A stretch of DNA of 34,084 nucleotides from Rhodocyclaceae bacterium (GTDB lineage Bacteria > Pseudomonadota > Gammaproteobacteria > Burkholderiales > Rhodocyclaceae): assembly GCA_020445785.1 (NCBI GenBank), contig JAGRFZ010000038.1, positions 1 through 34,084 of the forward strand, in the 5' to 3' direction. Made by a program: the position numbers and the translations under genes. Shown here piece after piece: positions 26,179 to 34,084 of this stretch. A model generated the notes under the pieces. The model searched no databases and had not been told where the DNA came from. It saw nothing but the letters and a program-made list of their open reading frames with translations. Position 1 is the first letter of the stretch, and every line of letters starts with the position of its first letter.

Positions 26179-26748
26179 ATGCGTACCCTGTTGATCGTTT
26201 CCCTGCTGGCCTCTGCCGGCGCTGTGCACGCCGGCGAACTCGAAACCTTGACCGAGCAGACCCGTGGCGAGGTCAAGCAGATCCTGCCGCAGGTGGCGGG
26301 GATGATGAAGTCCGCCGTGAAGGAGCAGGGCGTGGCGGCCGCCATTCCGGTATGCAAGGACAAGGCTCCGAAGCTGATGGCCGACAAGGCGCAGGCGCTC
26401 GGCTGGAAGATCCGCCGGGTCAGCCTCAAGACACGCAATCCCGAGCGGGCCACCCCCGACGCCTGGGAAAAGGACGTGCTGACCAGTTTCGATGCTCGCG
26501 CGGCAGCCGGCGAGGCCCCTGCCGGCATCGAGGCTGCCGAGATCGTGACCGCCGCCGACGGTCGGCGGATGTTCCGCTACATGAAGGCCTTGCCGGTCGC
26601 GCCGGTGTGCGTCCAGTGCCATGGCGAGCAGGCCAATCTGGCACCGGAGTTGGTGCAGGCTTTGGCACGCGACTACCCGCACGATGCGGCGACGGGGTAT
26701 GCCCCCGGTGAGATCCGCGGCGCGGTTTCGGTCGAGCGCCCACTGTGA
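26179..26748 (+). CDS. DUF3365 c-type heme protein
   Basis: This is a 189-residue protein with a signal peptide at about 1-18 (MRTLLIVSLLASAGAVHA). A single c-type heme site is Cys144-Val-Gln-Cys147-His148 in APVCVQCHGEQ. A second Cys lies in IPVCKDKAP. The DUF3365/Tll0287-like domain fills the chain, with the typical RNPERATPDAWEKDVL and FRYMKALPV. Such proteins bind heme in the periplasm and may sense redox or gas. The SD AAAGGAGGTG is almost fully complementary to the 16S 3' end, with short spacing, so strong translation is expected. A hairpin follows the stop, and an inverted repeat lies at the promoter. Confidence 0.9.
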   Translation: MRTLLIVSLLASAGAVHAGELETLTEQTRGEVKQILPQVAGMMKSAVKEQGVAAAIPVCKDKAPKLMADKAQALGWKIRRVSLKTRNPERATPDAWEKDVLTSFDARAAAGEAPAGIEAAEIVTAADGRRMFRYMKALPVAPVCVQCHGEQANLAPELVQALARDYPHDAATGYAPGEIRGAVSVERPL

Positions 26749-26754
26749 GCGGCG

Positions 26755-26780
26755 GCGGGCGAGCCGCTCGGTTCGCCCGC
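26755..26780 (+). terminator. Hairpin after the DUF3365 gene
   Basis: GCGGGCGA (26755-26762) pairs perfectly with TCGCCCGC (26773-26780) around a 10-base loop, starting 6 bases after the stop. No real T-run follows, so termination strength is uncertain. Confidence 0.4.
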
Positions 26781-26870
26781 TGTGCGACGCGGCCGCGGGC
26801 GCGGCGGCGGCCGGGGGAATCTTTCGAGCGGCGTGCGGTTCAAAGCCCCATGTCCTGCACGGAGTTGCCC

Positions 26871-27176
26871 ATGACCCCCGAAGCGCTGGAAGTCCTGATG
26901 TGCGATATCGAGAGCGGTGATCCGCTGGATTTCTCCGACCTGGGCATCGGCGAAGACGAAGCGCGCGGCCTGATGGCGCGGCATTTCTGTCAGCTCGACG
27001 GCGATCTGGCCGCCGAGGGCCTGGATGCGGAAGGCCGGCTGGCGGTGATGACCGCGATTGCGGCTCATACCATGGAGGCGAACTTTCTGATCCAGTTGCA
27101 GCGCCTGCGGTCCGCGGGCCAGGGGTTCGATCTCAAGGCTTGGATGAACGACCGGGGTTTCGTCCGCCGCCAGTAG
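26871..27176 (+). CDS. Small hypothetical protein
   Basis: This is a 101-residue acidic protein starting MTPEALEVLMCDIESG. ATG 26871 has GGAG at 6 bases; the ATG at 26850 has none. The chain looks mainly helical and soluble, with conserved-looking blocks DPLDFSDLGIGEDEARGL, MARHFCQLDGDL and MTAIAAHTMEANFLIQLQRL. No domain was recognised. Its last 44 bases overlap the end of the oppositely oriented TfoX-like gene, a tail-to-tail overlap. Confidence 0.65.
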   Translation: MTPEALEVLMCDIESGDPLDFSDLGIGEDEARGLMARHFCQLDGDLAAEGLDAEGRLAVMTAIAAHTMEANFLIQLQRLRSAGQGFDLKAWMNDRGFVRRQ

Positions 27177-27522
27177 CGGTCGTGCTGCGCTGACGCAGCG
27201 CGCACTCGATCGCCATTCGTGCCCAGGGTTGCATCGCCTGCGGGCTGTCGAGCGATTCGTCCGGAGCGCTCCAATAGCCCATCGAAAAGGTCCGGCCGTC
27301 GGTCCGCTCGCTGCGGAAGATCCGGCAGCCGGCCTGCTGGAACGCCGCCTGCGACTGCTCGTCCGCCTTCAGGTAGAGGGTGTTCCATGCCACCAGCGCG
27401 AAGAACAGGCCGTCGCAGTAGAAGCCGTGGCCGCCGAACATTCGTTTGGTCCGAATGTGGCCCAGTGGCGCGAACAGCTCGAGGGCGTGGGCGACGATCT
27501 CCGGTGCTGGGGCCGGGCACAC
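27133..27522 (-). CDS. TfoX/Sxy N-terminal domain protein
   Basis: This is a 129-residue protein. The GTG at 27522 begins 3 bases after the metF stop, pointing to coupling. The N-terminal domain of TfoX/Sxy is recognisable: FAPLGHIRTKRMFGGHGFYC, then DGLFFALVAWNTLYLKAD and TDGRTFSMGYW. Full-length TfoX regulates competence and has a second C-terminal domain, absent here; single-domain proteins of this kind have no clear function. The last 25 residues are Ser/Gly/Arg-rich and overlap the neighbouring plus-strand gene. It is the last gene of the SAH-riboswitch operon. Confidence 0.85.
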   Translation of the reverse strand: MCPAPAPEIVAHALELFAPLGHIRTKRMFGGHGFYCDGLFFALVAWNTLYLKADEQSQAAFQQAGCRIFRSERTDGRTFSMGYWSAPDESLDSPQAMQPWARMAIECALRQRSTTATGGGRNPGRSSKP

Positions 27523-27525
27523 GGG

Positions 27526-28365
27526 TCAGGTGCCGAGCCGGAGGCGCTCGACGATGGCGCGGGTCGCTGCGGACTGGTTCATGCAATAGAAGTGGAGACC
27601 GGGAGCGCCCGCCGAGATCAGCTTGTCGCACAGTTCGGTAACCACGTCGAGGCCGAAGGCCTTGATCGAATCGCTGTCGTCGCCAAACGATTCCAGCTTG
27701 CGTCGCATCCAGCGCGGGATCTCGGCGCCGCAGGCATCGGAGAAGCGCGCCAGTTTGACGAAACTGACGATCGGCATGATGCCCGGCACGATCGGCGCGT
27801 CGATACCCATCGCGCGGCAGGCGTCGACGAAGTGCAGATAGGCGTCGAGATTGTAGAAGTACTGCGTGATCGCGGCATCGGCGCCAGCGTCCATCTTGCG
27901 CTTGAACGCGATCAGGTCGTCTTGTGGAGAACGGGCCTGGGGATGGTATTCGGGGTAGGCAGCGACCTCGATGCGAAAGGTGTCGCCGGTCTCGCGACGG
28001 ATGTACTCGACCAGTTCGTTGGCATGGCGGAACTCGCCCGGATCGACCACGCCCGAGGGCAGGTCTCCGCGTAGGGCGACGATGCGGTCGATTCCGGCGT
28101 TGCGGTAGCGCTCGAGAATGTCGCGAATGCCTTCCCGGGTGGAGCCGACGCAGGACAGATGCGGGGCCACCGACAGCCCCTCCTGCTGGATCTCGAAGAC
28201 GGTCTCGAAAGTGCGCTCGCGGGTCGAGCCGCCGGCCCCGTAGGTCACCGAAAAGAACTCCGGGCCCAAGGTGGCGAGGCGGCCGCGCGCGAGGCGCAGC
28301 TTGTCCATGCCCGCCTGGGTCTGGGGCGGGAAGAACTCGATGCTGAAGGGGGTCTTGCCTGTCAT
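27526..28365 (-). CDS. metF: Methylenetetrahydrofolate reductase (MetF)
   Basis: This is a 279-residue flavoprotein that reduces 5,10-methylene-THF to 5-methyl-THF, the methyl donor for methionine synthesis. The motifs FSIEFFPPQTQAG, VTYGAGGSTRERT, HLSCVG, DRIVALRGDLP, EVAAYPEYHPQA, AITQYFYNLDAY and GLHFYCMNQS follow in family order, and the length matches bacterial MetF. The ATG at 28365 overlaps the tlyA stop (ATGA), so it is coupled. The placement behind ahcY and the SAH riboswitch fits the methyl-cycle logic: remove SAH and regenerate methionine. Confidence 0.96.
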   Translation of the reverse strand: MTGKTPFSIEFFPPQTQAGMDKLRLARGRLATLGPEFFSVTYGAGGSTRERTFETVFEIQQEGLSVAPHLSCVGSTREGIRDILERYRNAGIDRIVALRGDLPSGVVDPGEFRHANELVEYIRRETGDTFRIEVAAYPEYHPQARSPQDDLIAFKRKMDAGADAAITQYFYNLDAYLHFVDACRAMGIDAPIVPGIMPIVSFVKLARFSDACGAEIPRWMRRKLESFGDDSDSIKAFGLDVVTELCDKLISAGAPGLHFYCMNQSAATRAIVERLRLGT

Positions 28366-29210
28366 TCGTGGTTTCCTGTGGCGGCCGGTCCTTCGGGCCG
28401 GCGCGCATGAATGAAGAATTCGCGGTTGCCGTCGCCGCCGGCGATGGGGCTGTCGAAGTAGCCCAGTACGGTCATCCCTGCATCGACGAAGGCGGCGCGG
28501 ATGCGAGTCTCGACGGCGGCATGTTGCGCCGGGTCGCGCACGATGCCCCCCTTGCCGAGGCCGCGCGGGCCCACCTCGAACTGAGGCTTGACCAACGCCA
28601 GAACCTGCCCGCCTTCCCGCAGCAGCGCGCGCCAGCGCGGCAGCAGCAGCGTGACGGAAATGAAGCTGGCGTCGCAGACGACGAGGTCGAAGCCACTGGC
28701 GGGAAAGGCGTCGCCGAGGGCGGCCGGCGACAGATCGCGCGCGTTGATGCGCTCGATCGCGAGCACGCGGGGATCGGCTGCGAGGCGAGGGTGCAACTGG
28801 CCGTGACCGACCTCGATGCCGACCACGCGCTGTGCACCGGCCTGCAGCAGGCAATCGGTGAAGCCGCCGGTGGATTGGCCGACATCGAGGCATTCCGCAC
28901 CGCGGACCTCGATGCCGCTGCGCAGCAACGCGTCGGCGAGCTTGATGCCACCGCGCGAGACGAAACGATCCTGGTCGTCGCCGGCGATCTCGAAGCGGGC
29001 GCTGGCGGGTAGTTCCTGTGAGGCCTTGCGCACCAGCTCGCCGTCGGCCCGCACCCGGCCCGCCTCGATCAGCCGGCGCGCCGCGCTGCGCGATTCGGCG
29101 AGGCCCAACTCGCTCAGCAGGGCGTCGGCACGCACGCCGGCGCGCGGCTGCGGGGACCGCGACTCGCCCGCCGCGCGCGGACGGCGGCTGCGCGCGTGGA
29201 ACGAGTTCAT
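28362..29210 (-). CDS. tlyA: TlyA family rRNA 2'-O-methyltransferase
   Basis: This is a 282-residue protein. After a basic N-terminus it has an S4 RNA-binding domain (about 27-85; ADALLSELGLAESRSAARRL, then AGRVRADGELVRKASQEL). A FtsJ-like SAM-dependent methyltransferase domain follows: motif I CLDVGQSTGGFTDCLLQAG, then DLVVCDASFIS, LALVKPQFEVG and NREFFIHA. TlyA proteins methylate 16S and 23S rRNA 2'-hydroxyls and are also called hemolysins by old annotation. ATG 29210 lies 25 bases after ahcY; the frame extends to 29270 only as read-through of the ahcY end. Being SAM-dependent, it produces SAH, the ligand of the riboswitch upstream. Confidence 0.92.
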   Translation of the reverse strand: MNSFHARSRRPRAAGESRSPQPRAGVRADALLSELGLAESRSAARRLIEAGRVRADGELVRKASQELPASARFEIAGDDQDRFVSRGGIKLADALLRSGIEVRGAECLDVGQSTGGFTDCLLQAGAQRVVGIEVGHGQLHPRLAADPRVLAIERINARDLSPAALGDAFPASGFDLVVCDASFISVTLLLPRWRALLREGGQVLALVKPQFEVGPRGLGKGGIVRDPAQHAAVETRIRAAFVDAGMTVLGYFDSPIAGGDGNREFFIHARRPEGPAATGNHE

Positions 29211-29235
29211 GCTCACGATCGGGCCGCCCGCTCGC

Positions 29236-30648
<1,413 letters not shown>

Positions 30649-30731
30649 GCGAACTCCTTGAACGATGTGGCCGGGTTGGGGTGTAGCGGCATCGATGCCC
30701 ACCTCGCACCCCGTGCCCGGCACGGGTTAAA

Positions 30732-30824
30732 GGTGAGCGCCGTTAGTCGAAATGCCGGCACGAAGCCGGATCTTTCCCGAGCCTGGGGGCAGACGAATCA
30801 TGCAGCCTCGCAGCGCTCCTCGGG
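30732..30824 (-). ncRNA. SAH riboswitch aptamer upstream of ahcY
   Basis: Read on the minus strand, CCCGAGGAGCGCTGC (from 30824) and CAGGCTCGGG (ending 30776) form stem P1 (CCCGAG/CTCGGG). The P4-like hairpin CCGGC-TTCGT-GCCGG follows. AACGGCGCTCACC (30744-30732) then provides GCGCTC to pair with GAGCGC of the first strand, the pseudoknot that defines this class. These blocks are the conserved nucleotides of the SAH riboswitch known upstream of ahcY in Beta- and Gammaproteobacteria. It binds SAH and turns expression on. The position before ahcY makes the call strong. Confidence 0.93.
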
Positions 30825-30832
30825 ATCCCGCA

Positions 30833-30861
30833 AGTATAGCAACTCGGCCGCAGCGCAAGCA
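30833..30861 (-). promoter_or_regulatory. Promoter of the SAH-riboswitch operon
   Basis: The minus strand has TATACT at 30838-30833. This predicts a start near 30826, just 2 bases before riboswitch stem P1. A weak -35 (TGCTTG, 30861-30856) lies 17 bases upstream. The fit between the predicted start and the aptamer end supports the -10. Confidence 0.5.
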
Positions 30862-30938: not shown

Positions 30939-32021
30939 CTACGGTCCGCGGCCGCGCACCGAGTGTCGGACGAAGCTCGCGGCCAGCGTCAAGCCGGTCA
31001 GCGGCAGCACGAACAGCAGCATGACGCCGGAGAACATCGGCAGCATTTCGTGGTGCTGGGCCGACAGGATCAGGTAGGCCGTGTAGGCGGCATAGTAGCC
31101 GAGCAGCAATGCGCCCTCCCAGCGGCGGATCTCGCGGGCGGTCAGAAAGATCGGCAGGCACACGAATGCCACGGCCAACATCACCCACAGGTCGAAACTG
31201 CGGGCCGCTTCCGGCACGATCAGGCCGACCGGCGACACCAGCCCCGCGGCGCCGAGGCAGGCCAGGATATTGAACAGATTGCTTCCGACGACGTTGCCGA
31301 CCGCGATGTCGCGCTGGCCGCGCAATGCGGCCATCAGGGATGTGGCGATCTCCGGCATCGAGGTGCCGATGGCGACGATGGTGAGGCCGATCACCAGATC
31401 GCTCACGCCGAGCGCCCGCGCGAAGCTGACCGCCGATTGCACCAGCCAGTCTGCGCCGAGCACCAGCATCGCGAGGCCGACCGCGACCAGCATGAACTGC
31501 ACGCTCCAGTGCCGGTCCCAGCCGTTGTCCGCGGGCAGGTCCGCTTCCATGTCGGCACGCATCTGCGCCGAAGCCTTTCGCGCCTGGATCGTCAGGAAGC
31601 CGGTATAGCCCACCGACAACAGCAGCAGCAGGCCCGCTTCGGTCCGGGATATGTCGCCGTCGAGCGCCATCCCGACGATCAGGACGCTGGCGGCGATCAT
31701 GACCGGCACCTCCTGACGGACGATCTGCTCGGCCACCAACAACGGCGCGATCATTGCCGAAAGCCCCAGGATCAGGAGGATGTTGGCGATGTTGCTGCCG
31801 ATTACATTGCCGATGGCGAGGGAGGGATTGCCGTCGAGCGAGGCGTCGACCGCGACCGCGATCTCCGGTGCGCTGGTGCCGAAGGCAACCACCGTGAGTC
31901 CGACCACCAGGGGAGAGATGCCGAACGACAGGGCCAGGCGGGAAGCGCCCCGCACCAGGGCTTCGGCACCGATCGCCAGCAGCACGAGGCCGCCGGAAAA
32001 CAGCAGTAGTTCTACAGTCAT
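30939..32021 (-). CDS. Sodium/calcium exchanger family protein (CaCA, YrbG-like)
   Basis: This is a 360-residue inner-membrane protein of about ten helices in two inverted repeats. The alpha-repeat signatures are both present: VVAFGTSAPEIAVAV with GNVIGSNIANILLILG in the first half, and IVAIGTSMPEIATSL with GNVVGSNLFNILACLG in the second. These Glu/Ser/Asn residues bind the cations. Members exchange Ca2+ for Na+ (or H+). The E. coli YrbG is similar in kind. The first segment MTVELLLFSGGLVLLAIGAE is the normal start. It lies upstream of the ahcY unit on the same strand but is separated from it by the promoter and riboswitch. Confidence 0.94.
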   Translation of the reverse strand: MTVELLLFSGGLVLLAIGAEALVRGASRLALSFGISPLVVGLTVVAFGTSAPEIAVAVDASLDGNPSLAIGNVIGSNIANILLILGLSAMIAPLLVAEQIVRQEVPVMIAASVLIVGMALDGDISRTEAGLLLLLSVGYTGFLTIQARKASAQMRADMEADLPADNGWDRHWSVQFMLVAVGLAMLVLGADWLVQSAVSFARALGVSDLVIGLTIVAIGTSMPEIATSLMAALRGQRDIAVGNVVGSNLFNILACLGAAGLVSPVGLIVPEAARSFDLWVMLAVAFVCLPIFLTAREIRRWEGALLLGYYAAYTAYLILSAQHHEMLPMFSGVMLLFVLPLTGLTLAASFVRHSVRGRGP

Positions 32022-32488
32022 CTGATTCCGTGCGAGCTGGAAACCGCGGTGGCGCGCGTTCGAATAGGGATCTGCGGGCCCACCCGGCCGGGCACCGCGA
32101 CGCGGCGGGGCGAGCGTCGGTCGCGCCGATCGATCTGCAATGCCCGGGCCTGGCGAGCCGGGCGGGGCCTGGTCGAAGATTGACGTGGGTTCATGGTGTC
32201 ATGGGTGGTTGCAGGTGCTGGCGCGCCGCGCTTGGCTTCGATCGTCGGCAGGGGCCGATCCTGAGAGCGGAAATTCGTCGTCGAGTTCGCCGCTCGCGTC
32301 GCGGGAAGATCGCGGCGGAGCCGATCCGGCGCAGCGCAGCGACGAGGCAGGCGTCGCCAGTGCGCAATCGTCCGGCAACCGCCCAGCCGGCGGCGGAGAC
32401 GGCATGCCCGGCCTTTCCCCGAGATTGGTCGCGGCGCCCCGCATGCTGCGGGTCGTGACCGGTCGACACCGGCTTCGCCCGTGTCACC
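32022..32488. other. 467-base stretch without a supportable gene
   Basis: Frames here are Arg/Ala/Pro-rich shadows on both strands, with no SD-supported start. No tRNA-like arm or strong terminator was recognised. The promoter of the exchanger gene should lie near 32022-32100; no consensus pair is clear. Confidence 0.4.
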
Positions 32489-33412
32489 TCAGGTCAGATT
32501 GGCGGGTACGAAGTTTTGCCGGATCCACTTGATCATGTCCTGCCAGATGGCTTCCTGATCGCGGGCCGACGGCATTCGCGTCGCATGGGGAAGTTCGATC
32601 GTGATCACCGGTACGCCCTTGTGCACACCGCCGTAATTGCCGAGCGAGCCCGGATAGACGCCGAGGCGGTTCAGGCGAAGGCGGCCGAATCGCTTCGGTT
32701 CCTCGGCCGGTCCGTCGAAGTCGAGCACGCCGTATGGCGCGTGGATCGACACGATCACGTCGGGTCGGAACTTGGTGATTTCTTCCTGCAGCCAGCGTGT
32801 TTCCGGTTCGGATACCGGCACCCTGCCCGGGAAACGGCGAGGATCCTTGCGCGTCCGCCCGACCCAGTAGCGCATCGCCTTGTCGCTCCAGTCCGGCGTA
32901 TCGAAATTGCGATTGAGGTCGACACCGCGCGCATTCATGCGCTGGGCCGGCCGCATCAGCAGGCCGTCCGGGTTGGCGAGCGGGATGATCAGCCAATGCA
33001 GCTGCGACGCGTCTGCGCGATTCAAACGTTCCATCCACTTGAAGACGATCGATACGGAGGTCAGTTCGTCGCCATGGATGCCGCCGATCATCATGATGCG
33101 CGGACTGCGCGATGCGCCGTCGATCGAGGCGGATCTGCGTGGCAGTTGGGGCGGGCGCTCGAAACGCATCAATGCCCGGCCCTCGATCGAGGTTGCCGAC
33201 GACGGACGAAGCCCGGATTCTTCGCAGAATTCCGCGGACACGCTGAACAGGCGGTTGCCGATGGTCTCGCACCACTCGGACGAGACGATCTCGCTCGGCA
33301 AGGGTGCTGGCGGCTCGGCGACGGCCACGAGCGCGATGCCCGCCAGCACGCCCGCGAGAATTCCACGCAGGCCGCCAGCCAGAGCGGATCCGGTTGTTAT
33401 TGCGCGACGCAT
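32489..33412 (-). CDS. M14 family zinc carboxypeptidase, MpaA-like, secreted
   Basis: This is a 307-residue protein. ATG 33412 begins an N-terminal signal (residues about 1-32, LAGVLAGIALVAVA before EPPAP). The longer frame to 33661 runs through the repeat region and is not used. The catalytic site is complete: His113 and Glu116 in GGIHGDE, His224 in VSIHAPYG, and the general-base Glu273 in ITIELPHA. NPDG and RGVDLNRNFD are the substrate-binding blocks of the M14 family. The closest match by eye is murein peptide amidase A, which cuts the gamma-D-Glu-diaminopimelate bond of peptidoglycan peptides; unlike cytoplasmic MpaA this one is exported. It lies on the same strand downstream of metK, 250 bases away. 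Confidence 0.82.
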   Translation of the reverse strand: MRRAITTGSALAGGLRGILAGVLAGIALVAVAEPPAPLPSEIVSSEWCETIGNRLFSVSAEFCEESGLRPSSATSIEGRALMRFERPPQLPRRSASIDGASRSPRIMMIGGIHGDELTSVSIVFKWMERLNRADASQLHWLIIPLANPDGLLMRPAQRMNARGVDLNRNFDTPDWSDKAMRYWVGRTRKDPRRFPGRVPVSEPETRWLQEEITKFRPDVIVSIHAPYGVLDFDGPAEEPKRFGRLRLNRLGVYPGSLGNYGGVHKGVPVITIELPHATRMPSARDQEAIWQDMIKWIRQNFVPANLT

Positions 33413-33502
33413 ATCGCGCAATAGTAGCAGGAAGGCGGGTCTGCCGAGCCCCCGCTCGTGAATCGAATCCGACCGTCCGCCGAGCCCTGCTGCCCCGATC
33501 CC

Positions 33503-33662
33503 GAAAACGCCGGACCGTCCTGAGTATTCTCGACCTCCTCGAGGAGCGGGGCGGGCGTAGCCCGGCCTGGGGGCGGTCCCAAGAAAACGCCGGGCCGTCC
33601 CAAATTTTCTTGACCCCCTCGGGGGGCGGGGCGGGCGTAGCCCGGCCCTGGGGGCGGTCAAC
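33503..33662. repeat. Two-copy 80-bp tandem direct repeat downstream of metK
   Basis: Copy 1 (33503-33582) and copy 2 (33583-33662) both begin GAAAACGCCGG and share CCGTCC, a central variable segment, GCGGGGCGGGCGTAGCCCGG and a GGGCGGTC end. Each contains the hairpin GGGC-GTA-GCCC and a second palindrome at the centre: CTCCTCGAGGAG in copy 1 and CCCCCTCGGGGG in copy 2. There, base changes keep the pairing. The repeat abuts the metK stop (33663-33665). It looks like a dispersed GC-rich extragenic palindromic repeat or a double 3' stem that stabilises metK mRNA. Confidence 0.85.
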
Positions 33663-34084
33663 TCAAGCCAAGCCAGCGTCCTTGCGCAGCTGGTCCGCCT
33701 TGTCGGTCGCCTCCCACGTGAATTCGGGCTCGTCGCGCCCGAAGTGCCCGTAGGCGGCAGTCTTGCCGTAGATCGGCCGCAGCAGATCGAGGCCGACGAT
33801 GATGCCCTTCGGCCGCAGATCGAAGTGTTCGCGGATCAGCTCGACGATGCGGGCCTCCGGAATCTTCGCTGTGCCGAAGGTGTTGACCATCAACGACACC
33901 GGATTGGCGACGCCGATGGCGTAGGCGACCTGGACCTCGCAACGCTCCGCGAGCCCGGCGGCCACGATGTTTTTGGCCACATGGCGGCCGGCATACGCGG
34001 CCGAGCGGTCCACTTTGGAAGGATCCTTGCCCGAGAAGGCGCCGCCGCCATGGTGGGCGGCACCGCCATAGGTGTCGACGATGA
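33663..34084 (-). CDS. metK: S-adenosylmethionine synthetase, C-terminal part (partial)
   Basis: The frame runs off the window end and stops at 33663. The visible 140 C-terminal residues include the metal/substrate loop [61 protein letters not shown] and [14 protein letters not shown], all highly typical of MetK. The enzyme makes SAM from ATP and methionine. Together with ahcY and metF downstream on the same strand, the neighbourhood covers most of the methyl cycle. The promoter and any riboswitch for metK are outside the window. Confidence 0.96.

What the first reader, a model, noticed from the sequence alone, without database searches (positions are those of the whole stretch)
27133..30838. 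SAH riboswitch heading a four-gene unit ahcY-tlyA-metF-tfoX-like
The aptamer carries P1, a P4-like stem and the GAGCGC/GCGCTC pseudoknot, right behind a TATACT promoter. The genes behind it are spaced 25 bases, overlap by ATGA, or are 3 bases apart, so all four are likely under SAH control. Riboswitch control of ahcY, often with metF, is known. An SAH-inducible rRNA methyltransferase and a TfoX-like protein in the same unit would be new information.
Basis: partly seen in the sequence, partly recalled or inferred. Interest (0 to 1): 0.72.

Follow-up and report, generated by a model that had tools for sequence, protein, structure and literature searches.

The report
SAH riboswitch heading ahcY-tlyA-metF-tfoX operon
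A known kind of RNA switch that senses a methylation by-product sits in front of the genes that recycle that by-product; two extra genes ride along, of kinds already predicted in print for related bacteria, and the RNA behind the sensor shows a conserved three-strand relay that may open the ribosome site.

Summary
Confirmed: RF01057 (SAH riboswitch) matches window 30827..30728 (-) at 50.5 bits, cut-off 37, behind a -10 box TATACT; ahcY, tlyA, metF and a TfoX_N-only gene follow with gaps of 25, -4 and 3 nt. The genome is a Rhodocyclaceae near Denitromonas. The claimed novelty is mostly in print: COG1189 (TlyA group) in SAH-riboswitch operons of Comamonadaceae (PMC4239095, passages) and PF04993 (TfoX_N) in Ralstonia (PMC3766115, passage). 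Among 109 riboswitch-ahcY-metF loci, 40 carry full-length tlyA and 7 carry tfoX within 150 nt of metF. These helices held on 64 leaders not used to define them, but folding energies do not show the switch in the window. The genome's second riboswitch, before metH, instead folds its pseudoknot strand into a terminator-like hairpin. So ahcY control is probably translational; SAH control of tlyA, metF and tfoX is indirect and unproven. Modest interest.

The parts
30833..30838 (-). -10 box TATACT, 5 nt before the aptamer
   Evidence: a -10 of at least 5/6 in the last 25 nt before the aptamer in 59 of 71 riboswitch loci, 4.0 expected
30728..30827 (-). SAH riboswitch aptamer (RF01057), with an inserted hairpin CCGGCUUCGUGCCGG before the 3' pseudoknot strand
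   Evidence: cmscan 50.5 bits, gathering 37
30732..30738 (-). 3' pseudoknot strand with extension, GCUCACC (5' arm of helix B)
   Evidence: helix B cells 95.7% paired in 33 leaders, 85.6% in 64 held-out leaders
30716..30723 (-). GUGCCGGG, proposed antisequestor 5' arm (helix A)
   Evidence: helix A 90.4% and 98.4% paired in its two parts; 88.4% in 64 held-out leaders with 20 double-change cells, 8.8 in shuffles
30697..30703 (-). GGUGGGC, competitor of the pseudoknot strand (3' arm of helix B)
30667..30675 (-). CCCGGCCAC, shared middle strand: helix A with the upstream arm or helix C with ahcY codons 3-6
30654..30659 (-). Shine-Dalgarno AAGGAG of ahcY
   Evidence: read directly
30633..30640 (-). 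UGUGGCUG inside the ahcY coding region, 3' arm of helix C (proposed sequestor)
   Evidence: upper helix C 89.1% paired, 83.8% in 64 held-out leaders, 34 double-change cells against 14.1 in shuffles
29236..30648 (-). ahcY, adenosylhomocysteinase, 470 aa
   Evidence: TIGR00936 618 bits, PF05221
28362..29210 (-). tlyA, S4 plus FtsJ rRNA 2'-O-methyltransferase of the TlyA group, 282 aa from the ATG at 29210 (the frame is open to a GTG at 29270)
   Evidence: aligned to TlyA structure 7s0s, E 7.6e-46
27526..28365 (-). metF, methylenetetrahydrofolate reductase, 279 aa, overlaps tlyA by ATGA
   Evidence: TIGR00676 328 bits
27133..27522 (-). TfoX N-terminal-domain protein, 129 aa, GTG start; no other Pfam domain matched
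   Evidence: PF04993 107 bits; profile of 8 relatives matches 2od0, E 1.2e-19

Best explanation
A class RF01057 SAH riboswitch switches on ahcY when SAH builds up, and the mRNA continues through tlyA, metF and tfoX. Proposed mechanism: without SAH, the pseudoknot strand GCUCACC is captured by the downstream GGUGGGC (helix B). Helix B crosses helix A topologically, so helix A (GUGCCGGG with CCCGGCCAC) is prevented, and the CCCGGCCAC strand instead closes a hairpin with ahcY codons 3-6 (helix C) that holds the Shine-Dalgarno and start codon: OFF. With SAH, the pseudoknot holds its strand, helix A forms while the leader is being transcribed and before the coding arm of helix C exists, and the ribosome site stays open: ON. 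tlyA, metF and tfoX follow through co-transcription and translational coupling. Shown here: the aptamer match, the genes, and conservation with double changes for helices A, B and C. Inferred: ligand binding, ON polarity (recalled for the class), the order of folding, co-transcription and coupling.
For: RF01057 at 50.5 bits, and present in 56 of 61 genomes of the relatives sample and 135 of 141 of the family sample, own genome included. Helices B and A: 93.9% of 461 cells paired in 33 leaders, slid controls 33.0-50.2%, covariation score above all 500 shuffles. Helix C plus inner hairpin: 83.8% of 588 cells, slid 32.2-40.4%. On 64 leaders not used to define the pairs: B 85.6%, A 88.4%, C1 83.8%, slid controls 24.6-62.7%; double-change cells A 20 against 8.8 and C1 34 against 14.1 (0 of 500 shuffles as high in either), B 5 against 1.5 (2 of 500). 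Of 94 genomes, 80 have C or U at the middle-strand column and G or A at the coding column: 46 C-G, 26 U-A, 5 C-A, 3 U-G; 13 of the 94 have all three strands changed, G-C-G to A-U-A. In all 9 GTG-start leaders shown the start codon itself lies in the predicted hairpin. No terminator-like site in the ahcY leader, whereas metH leaders have one built on the pseudoknot strand in 38 of 58 (0.5 expected), ahcY leaders in 7 of 108 (0.6 expected).
Against: Equilibrium folding does not show the switch: blocking the pseudoknot strand raised Shine-Dalgarno accessibility by more than 0.05 in 6 of 42 leaders and lowered it in 16, window included (0.78 to 0.61). With the RNA cut at the start codon, the middle strand pairs upstream more when the pseudoknot strand is blocked in 20 of 37 leaders and less in 6, but the window does not change (0.74 both). 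In one search the number of pairs with double changes and of pair types is no higher than in shuffles (221 and 236 of 500), and a slide by 3 gives a similar number of double-change cells (16 against 17). With relatedness counted the covariation is weak: 3-5 independent pairs on supported branches, too few for significance, none against. The lower stem of helix C and the inner hairpin show no excess covariation in the held-out set. Five of 42 leaders show no hairpin C, and the criterion was loose, so some of the 37 are not the same helix. No expression data.
Confidence: 0.55

Rival explanations
1. Ordinary SAH riboswitch controlling only ahcY in practice; tlyA, metF and tfoX are neighbours with their own weak promoters or post-transcriptional fate.
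For: A translational platform acts directly only on ahcY. By coordinates tlyA lies elsewhere in 3 of 20 genomes with a full-length copy and tfoX lies elsewhere in 7 of 17 genomes with a strong copy, so linkage is not obligatory.
Against: Gaps of 25, -4 and 3 nt, no terminator-like or promoter-like site found inside; same order in same-genus genomes G001 and G005 with gaps 24-25, -4 and 3, and in G003 with an insert after ahcY and gaps of 21 and 138 nt.
Confidence: 0.25
2. Transcriptional control: the GCUCACC/GGUGAGC hairpin acts as a pause or Rho-linked terminator, so that SAH lifts premature termination of the whole operon.
For: Helix B is a well conserved hairpin and metH copies appear to use termination (38 of 58); this would give direct control of all four genes.
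Against: No U-tract behind helix B in the window; ahcY leaders have a terminator-like hairpin on the pseudoknot strand in only 7 of 108. It would leave the conserved pairing with the ahcY start unexplained. Rho effects were not testable.
Confidence: 0.12
3. The pairing of the middle strand with ahcY codons 3-6 is a by-product of protein conservation (MN-A/T-V-A-D) and GC-rich composition, not a regulatory helix.
For: The N-terminal residues are conserved; independent-pair tests are under-powered; energy tests do not show a switch in the window.
Against: Slid controls fall to 24.6-46.3% for C1 against 83.8%, and double-change cells exceed all 500 shuffles; 9 of 9 GTG-start leaders keep the same RNA element although it is now the start codon.
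Confidence: 0.2

Closest known systems
SAH riboswitch, Rfam RF01057, upstream of ahcY-metF in beta- and gammaproteobacteria (PMC4239095, passages)
   Same: Aptamer model match over its full length, ahcY and metF in one unit, metH as second target in the same genome
   Different: Rhodocyclaceae leader with the A/B/C relay and tfoX attached; neither appears in the passages read
SAH-riboswitch operons with COG1189 in Comamonadaceae (PMC4239095, passages)
   Same: TlyA-group gene in the riboswitch operon; COG1189 holds TlyA (PMC2954847, one passage)
   Different: Another family; here full-length tlyA in 40 of 109 sampled loci, 38 of them in the window's family
PF04993 genes in the Ralstonia SAH regulon (PMC3766115, passage)
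   Same: TfoX_N-domain gene predicted under an SAH riboswitch
   Different: Another genus and family; there named together with PF04020, which no protein of the unit matched
metH SAH riboswitch of the same genome, G000:C4:734-815
   Same: Same aptamer class, 54.8 bits
   Different: Its pseudoknot strand folds into a terminator-like hairpin with a short U run (-25.3 kcal/mol over 54 nt), not a relay to the ribosome site

Membership tests
SAH riboswitch (RF01057) | Covariance-model score above the gathering score over the whole model | tested here: met
   50.5 against 37 bits, positions 1-78
SAH riboswitch (RF01057) | Pseudoknot GAGCGC with GCGCUC | tested here: met
   Read in the sequence; the GCGCUC strand is invariant in the 33 rows of alignment A2. 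Pairing itself was not probed.
SAH riboswitch (RF01057) | Located before SAH/methionine-cycle genes | tested here: met
   ahcY directly downstream, metF in the unit; second copy before metH (metH by tblastn and reading)
SAH riboswitch (RF01057) | Binds SAH and discriminates against SAM; raises expression | not testable with these tools
   needs in-line probing and reporter; polarity is recalled for the class
TlyA rRNA 2'-O-methyltransferase | S4 plus FtsJ domains | tested here: met
   PF01479 and PF01728
TlyA rRNA 2'-O-methyltransferase | NCBIfam TIGR00478 curated cut-off | tested here: not met
   176.8 against 185.8 bits; of 20 genomes with a full-length hit only 4 reach it, so this branch lies about at the cut-off. 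I therefore say TlyA group, not TlyA proven.
TlyA rRNA 2'-O-methyltransferase | K-D-K-E catalytic tetrad | tested here: met
   tetrad named in PMC2954847; window residues K in SRGGIK, D in VCDASFIS, K in LVKPQFE, E in GNREFF, matched by eye on the alignment to 7s0s
TfoX/Sxy competence regulator | TfoX_N domain | tested here: met
   PF04993 106.6 bits
TfoX/Sxy competence regulator | Second, C-terminal TfoX domain as in the E. coli Sxy (recalled) | tested here: not met
   129 aa, only PF04993 matched at E 0.001; so a TfoX_N protein, not filed as a competence regulator

The most novel reading that the evidence does not exclude
In Rhodocyclaceae the ahcY SAH riboswitch works by a topological relay: the pseudoknot strand decides, through helix B, whether an antisequestor (helix A) can form before the ahcY coding arm of the sequestor (helix C) is made, so that codons 3-6 of the enzyme are part of the switch; in the same genome the metH copy of the same aptamer is wired to a terminator instead.
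Probability: 0.45. Interest if true: 0.5.

Novelty: new member of a known kind. Interest (0 to 1): 0.36.

Why it matters
It adds a defined, testable expression platform to a riboswitch class whose aptamer is well known, and suggests one aptamer class wired to two different outputs in one genome. It also supports, with a wider sample, the published prediction that an rRNA methyltransferase of the TlyA group travels with SAH recycling. The tfoX gene remains a hitchhiker of unknown function.

Tried and rejected
Direct pairing of the Shine-Dalgarno with the pseudoknot strand (my first idea, by eye in the window) was dropped: the in-register partner in most Rhodocyclaceae ahcY leaders is GGUGAGC. 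Several other-family leaders with short spacers do look like direct sequestration, read by eye only.

A simple equilibrium test of the switch failed to support it; it is kept as evidence against. A cut-RNA test supported it in 20 of 37 leaders but not in the window.

The inner hairpin CCCGUGC/GCACGGG was first taken as a part of the mechanism; it shows no excess covariation in the held-out set and was taken out of the core model.

A promoter with both boxes was not found by the strict scan; only the -10 is supported.

It is therefore not among the 38 of 58. I lowered two odds slightly (best explanation 0.6 to 0.55, novel case 0.5 to 0.45) after setting out the weaker measures.

Two SAH-riboswitch papers asked for by DOI (recalled) and two by PMC number (recalled) are not held, so I cannot say whether this platform has been drawn before.

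Rows dropped before counts: alignment A2 uses 33 of 35 family-f1 ahcY riboswitch leaders of the first sample (G011 and G024 left out for short leaders); the accessibility test uses the 42 leaders of at least 45 nt of the first sample with a called start (G005 had none); the held-out test uses 64 of 70 ahcY leaders (6 under 45 nt left out) and adds them to A2 with its columns kept; one of the 114 new loci held neither ahcY nor metH; the listing was cut by the tool, so weaker matches were not fetched; the tree uses 94 of 97 leaders. New loci reach only about 5.5 kb downstream, so tfoX counts are lower bounds.
Full report
Observation. The window holds one Rfam hit above threshold, the SAH riboswitch RF01057 at 30827..30728 on the minus strand, 50.5 bits against a gathering score of 37. 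A -10 box TATACT lies at 30838..30833. Behind the aptamer come ahcY (30648..29236), tlyA (29210..28362), metF (28365..27526) and a TfoX_N gene (27522..27133), all on the same strand, identified by NCBIfam and Pfam. No terminator-like or strict promoter-like site was found between 26600 and 31100.

Where it is. The nearest named loci for the TfoX protein are Rhodocyclaceae: a MAG (HKST-UBA162) with the same gene order, and Denitromonas ohlonensis with an extra 1.6 kb after ahcY. The window's genome carries a second SAH riboswitch, G000:C4:734-815, 54.8 bits, in front of metH.

How common. RF01057 is found in 56 of 61 genomes of the relatives sample and 135 of 141 of the family sample, own genome included in both. 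I fetched the downstream DNA of 70 riboswitch places of the first sample (69 loci) and of 114 places of further genomes listed. Of 109 loci where both ahcY and metF are seen, 40 carry a full-length tlyA, 3 carry only an S4-sized frame, and 7 carry tfoX within 150 nt of metF (G000, G001, G003, G005, G030, G036, G137). In the first sample 20 of 61 genomes have a full-length TlyA hit; by coordinates 15 lie in the riboswitch operon, 3 lie elsewhere and 2 are on contigs that end. TfoX_N hits over 90 bits occur in 17 of 61 genomes; by coordinates 8 lie downstream of the riboswitch-ahcY-metF unit (in two of these, G035 and G046, 0.8 and 1.4 kb past metF), one more (G002) lies beside tlyA on a broken contig, 7 lie elsewhere and 1 cannot be placed. 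Among the 80 named TfoX loci kept by the search, 37 have ahcY, metF, tlyA or metH nearby; in Accumulibacter and Propionivibrio records the TfoX hit begins 12-34 nt after the MetF hit. All 9 of these 37 that I scanned have RF01057.

What is already known. PMC4239095 (passages) reports ahcY and metF as the core SAH-riboswitch regulon, with COG1189 and metH in Comamonadaceae. COG1189 holds TlyA (PMC2954847, one passage). PMC3766115 (passages) reports PF04993, which is TfoX_N, and PF04020 in Ralstonia. So neither an rRNA methyltransferase nor a TfoX-domain gene in an SAH-riboswitch operon is new as a prediction. Searches of the held library for 'SAH riboswitch' with tlyA found no paper, and for two or more of the terms S-adenosylhomocysteine riboswitch, TlyA, TfoX, COG1189 and PF04993 found two papers, neither with the riboswitch term.

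The proteins. TlyA has S4 and FtsJ domains and aligns with solved TlyA structures (7s0s, E 7.6e-46) with the K-D-K-E residues in place by eye; it scores a little below the NCBIfam cut-off, as do 16 of the 20 full-length hits. The TfoX protein has only the N-terminal domain, and the profile of 8 relatives matches one solved structure, 2od0, deposited as a hypothetical protein. I do not call it a competence regulator.

The expression platform. Printing the leaders showed a shared layout in most ahcY leaders of the family: pseudoknot strand GCGCUCACC, then GUGCCGGG, then GGUGAGC, then CCCGGCCAC close to AAGGAG, then the start codon and UGUGGCUG in codons 3-6. Three helices compete: B (GCUCACC with GGUGAGC), A (GUGCCGGG with CCCGGCCAC, one bulge) and C (CGGCCACA with UGUGGCUG, holding the Shine-Dalgarno and the AUG inside). 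B uses the strand of the aptamer pseudoknot, A crosses B, and A and C share a strand. In 33 family leaders, 93.9% of cells pair in A plus B (slid controls 33.0-50.2%) and 83.8% in C plus the inner hairpin (slid 32.2-40.4%). In one search the cells with double changes exceed all shuffles (17 against 7.4) but the number of pairs with double changes does not (221 of 500 shuffles as high). On 64 further leaders not used to define the pairs, B, A and C1 pair in 85.6, 88.4 and 83.8% of cells, and double changes in A (20 against 8.8) and C1 (34 against 14.1) exceed all 500 shuffles. In 13 of 94 genomes all three strands have changed together from G-C-G to A-U-A, and in 13 more the middle and coding strands have changed while the upstream arm keeps a G-U pair. 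The caveat is relatedness: 3-5 independent pairs stand on supported branches, none against the expectation but some without change, too few for significance. In all 9 GTG-start leaders shown the start codon itself is in the predicted hairpin.

Against it, equilibrium folding does not show more Shine-Dalgarno access when the pseudoknot strand is blocked (up in 6, down in 16 of 42; the window goes down from 0.78 to 0.61). If the RNA is cut at the start codon, the middle strand is held upstream more often when the pseudoknot strand is blocked (20 up, 6 down of 37), but the window itself is unchanged at 0.74. The model therefore rests on order of folding during transcription and on conservation, not on energy in the window.

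Two outputs in one class. In metH leaders a terminator-like hairpin with the pseudoknot strand as its 5' arm was counted in 38 of 58 (0.5 expected by shuffling), in ahcY leaders in 7 of 108 (0.6 expected). The window genome's own metH leader was not counted by that script, because another helix scored slightly higher, but it folds into the same hairpin as those of G001-G004, with a short run of U behind it. So the class appears to use antitermination before metH and, most likely, translational control before ahcY.

Verdict. A real and well-supported SAH riboswitch operon, a new member of a known kind. The gene content extends published predictions. The relay platform is the part worth testing; whether it has been described in papers that are not held I cannot say.

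Noticed in passing
L052:2656-4181 (genome G003) and gaps of the same size in G035, G014, G142, G062, G088, G137, G120, G063: A GNAT acetyltransferase plus carbon-nitrogen hydrolase pair lies between ahcY and tlyA in G003 (Pfam); eight more genomes have a gap of about 1.6 kb at the same place, whose content I did not check.
   Followed up: partly
L060:2644-2895 (G025), L259 (G109), L268 (G061): In place of tlyA only a short open frame of 83-97 codons remains, overlapping metF by 4 nt in all three; in G025 it matches the S4 domain: a possible S4-only protein or remnant.
   Followed up: partly
G046:C93:83612-83683 and 83462-83549 (L049): Two SAH riboswitches in tandem before one ahcY.
   Followed up: no
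window 27133-27176: The end of tfoX (-) overlaps by 44 nt the end of a convergent + strand ORF (26745..27176, no Pfam match).
   Followed up: no
L117:12588-12669: In an Accumulibacter MAG a SAM_alpha match (39 bits, cut-off 36) lies just before a metH hit.
   Followed up: no
window 30939-34082: metK (3' part, cut by the window edge), an M14-type peptidase gene and a calcium/sodium antiporter gene lie upstream on the same strand; in several relatives a MetK hit lies directly before the riboswitch.
   Followed up: partly
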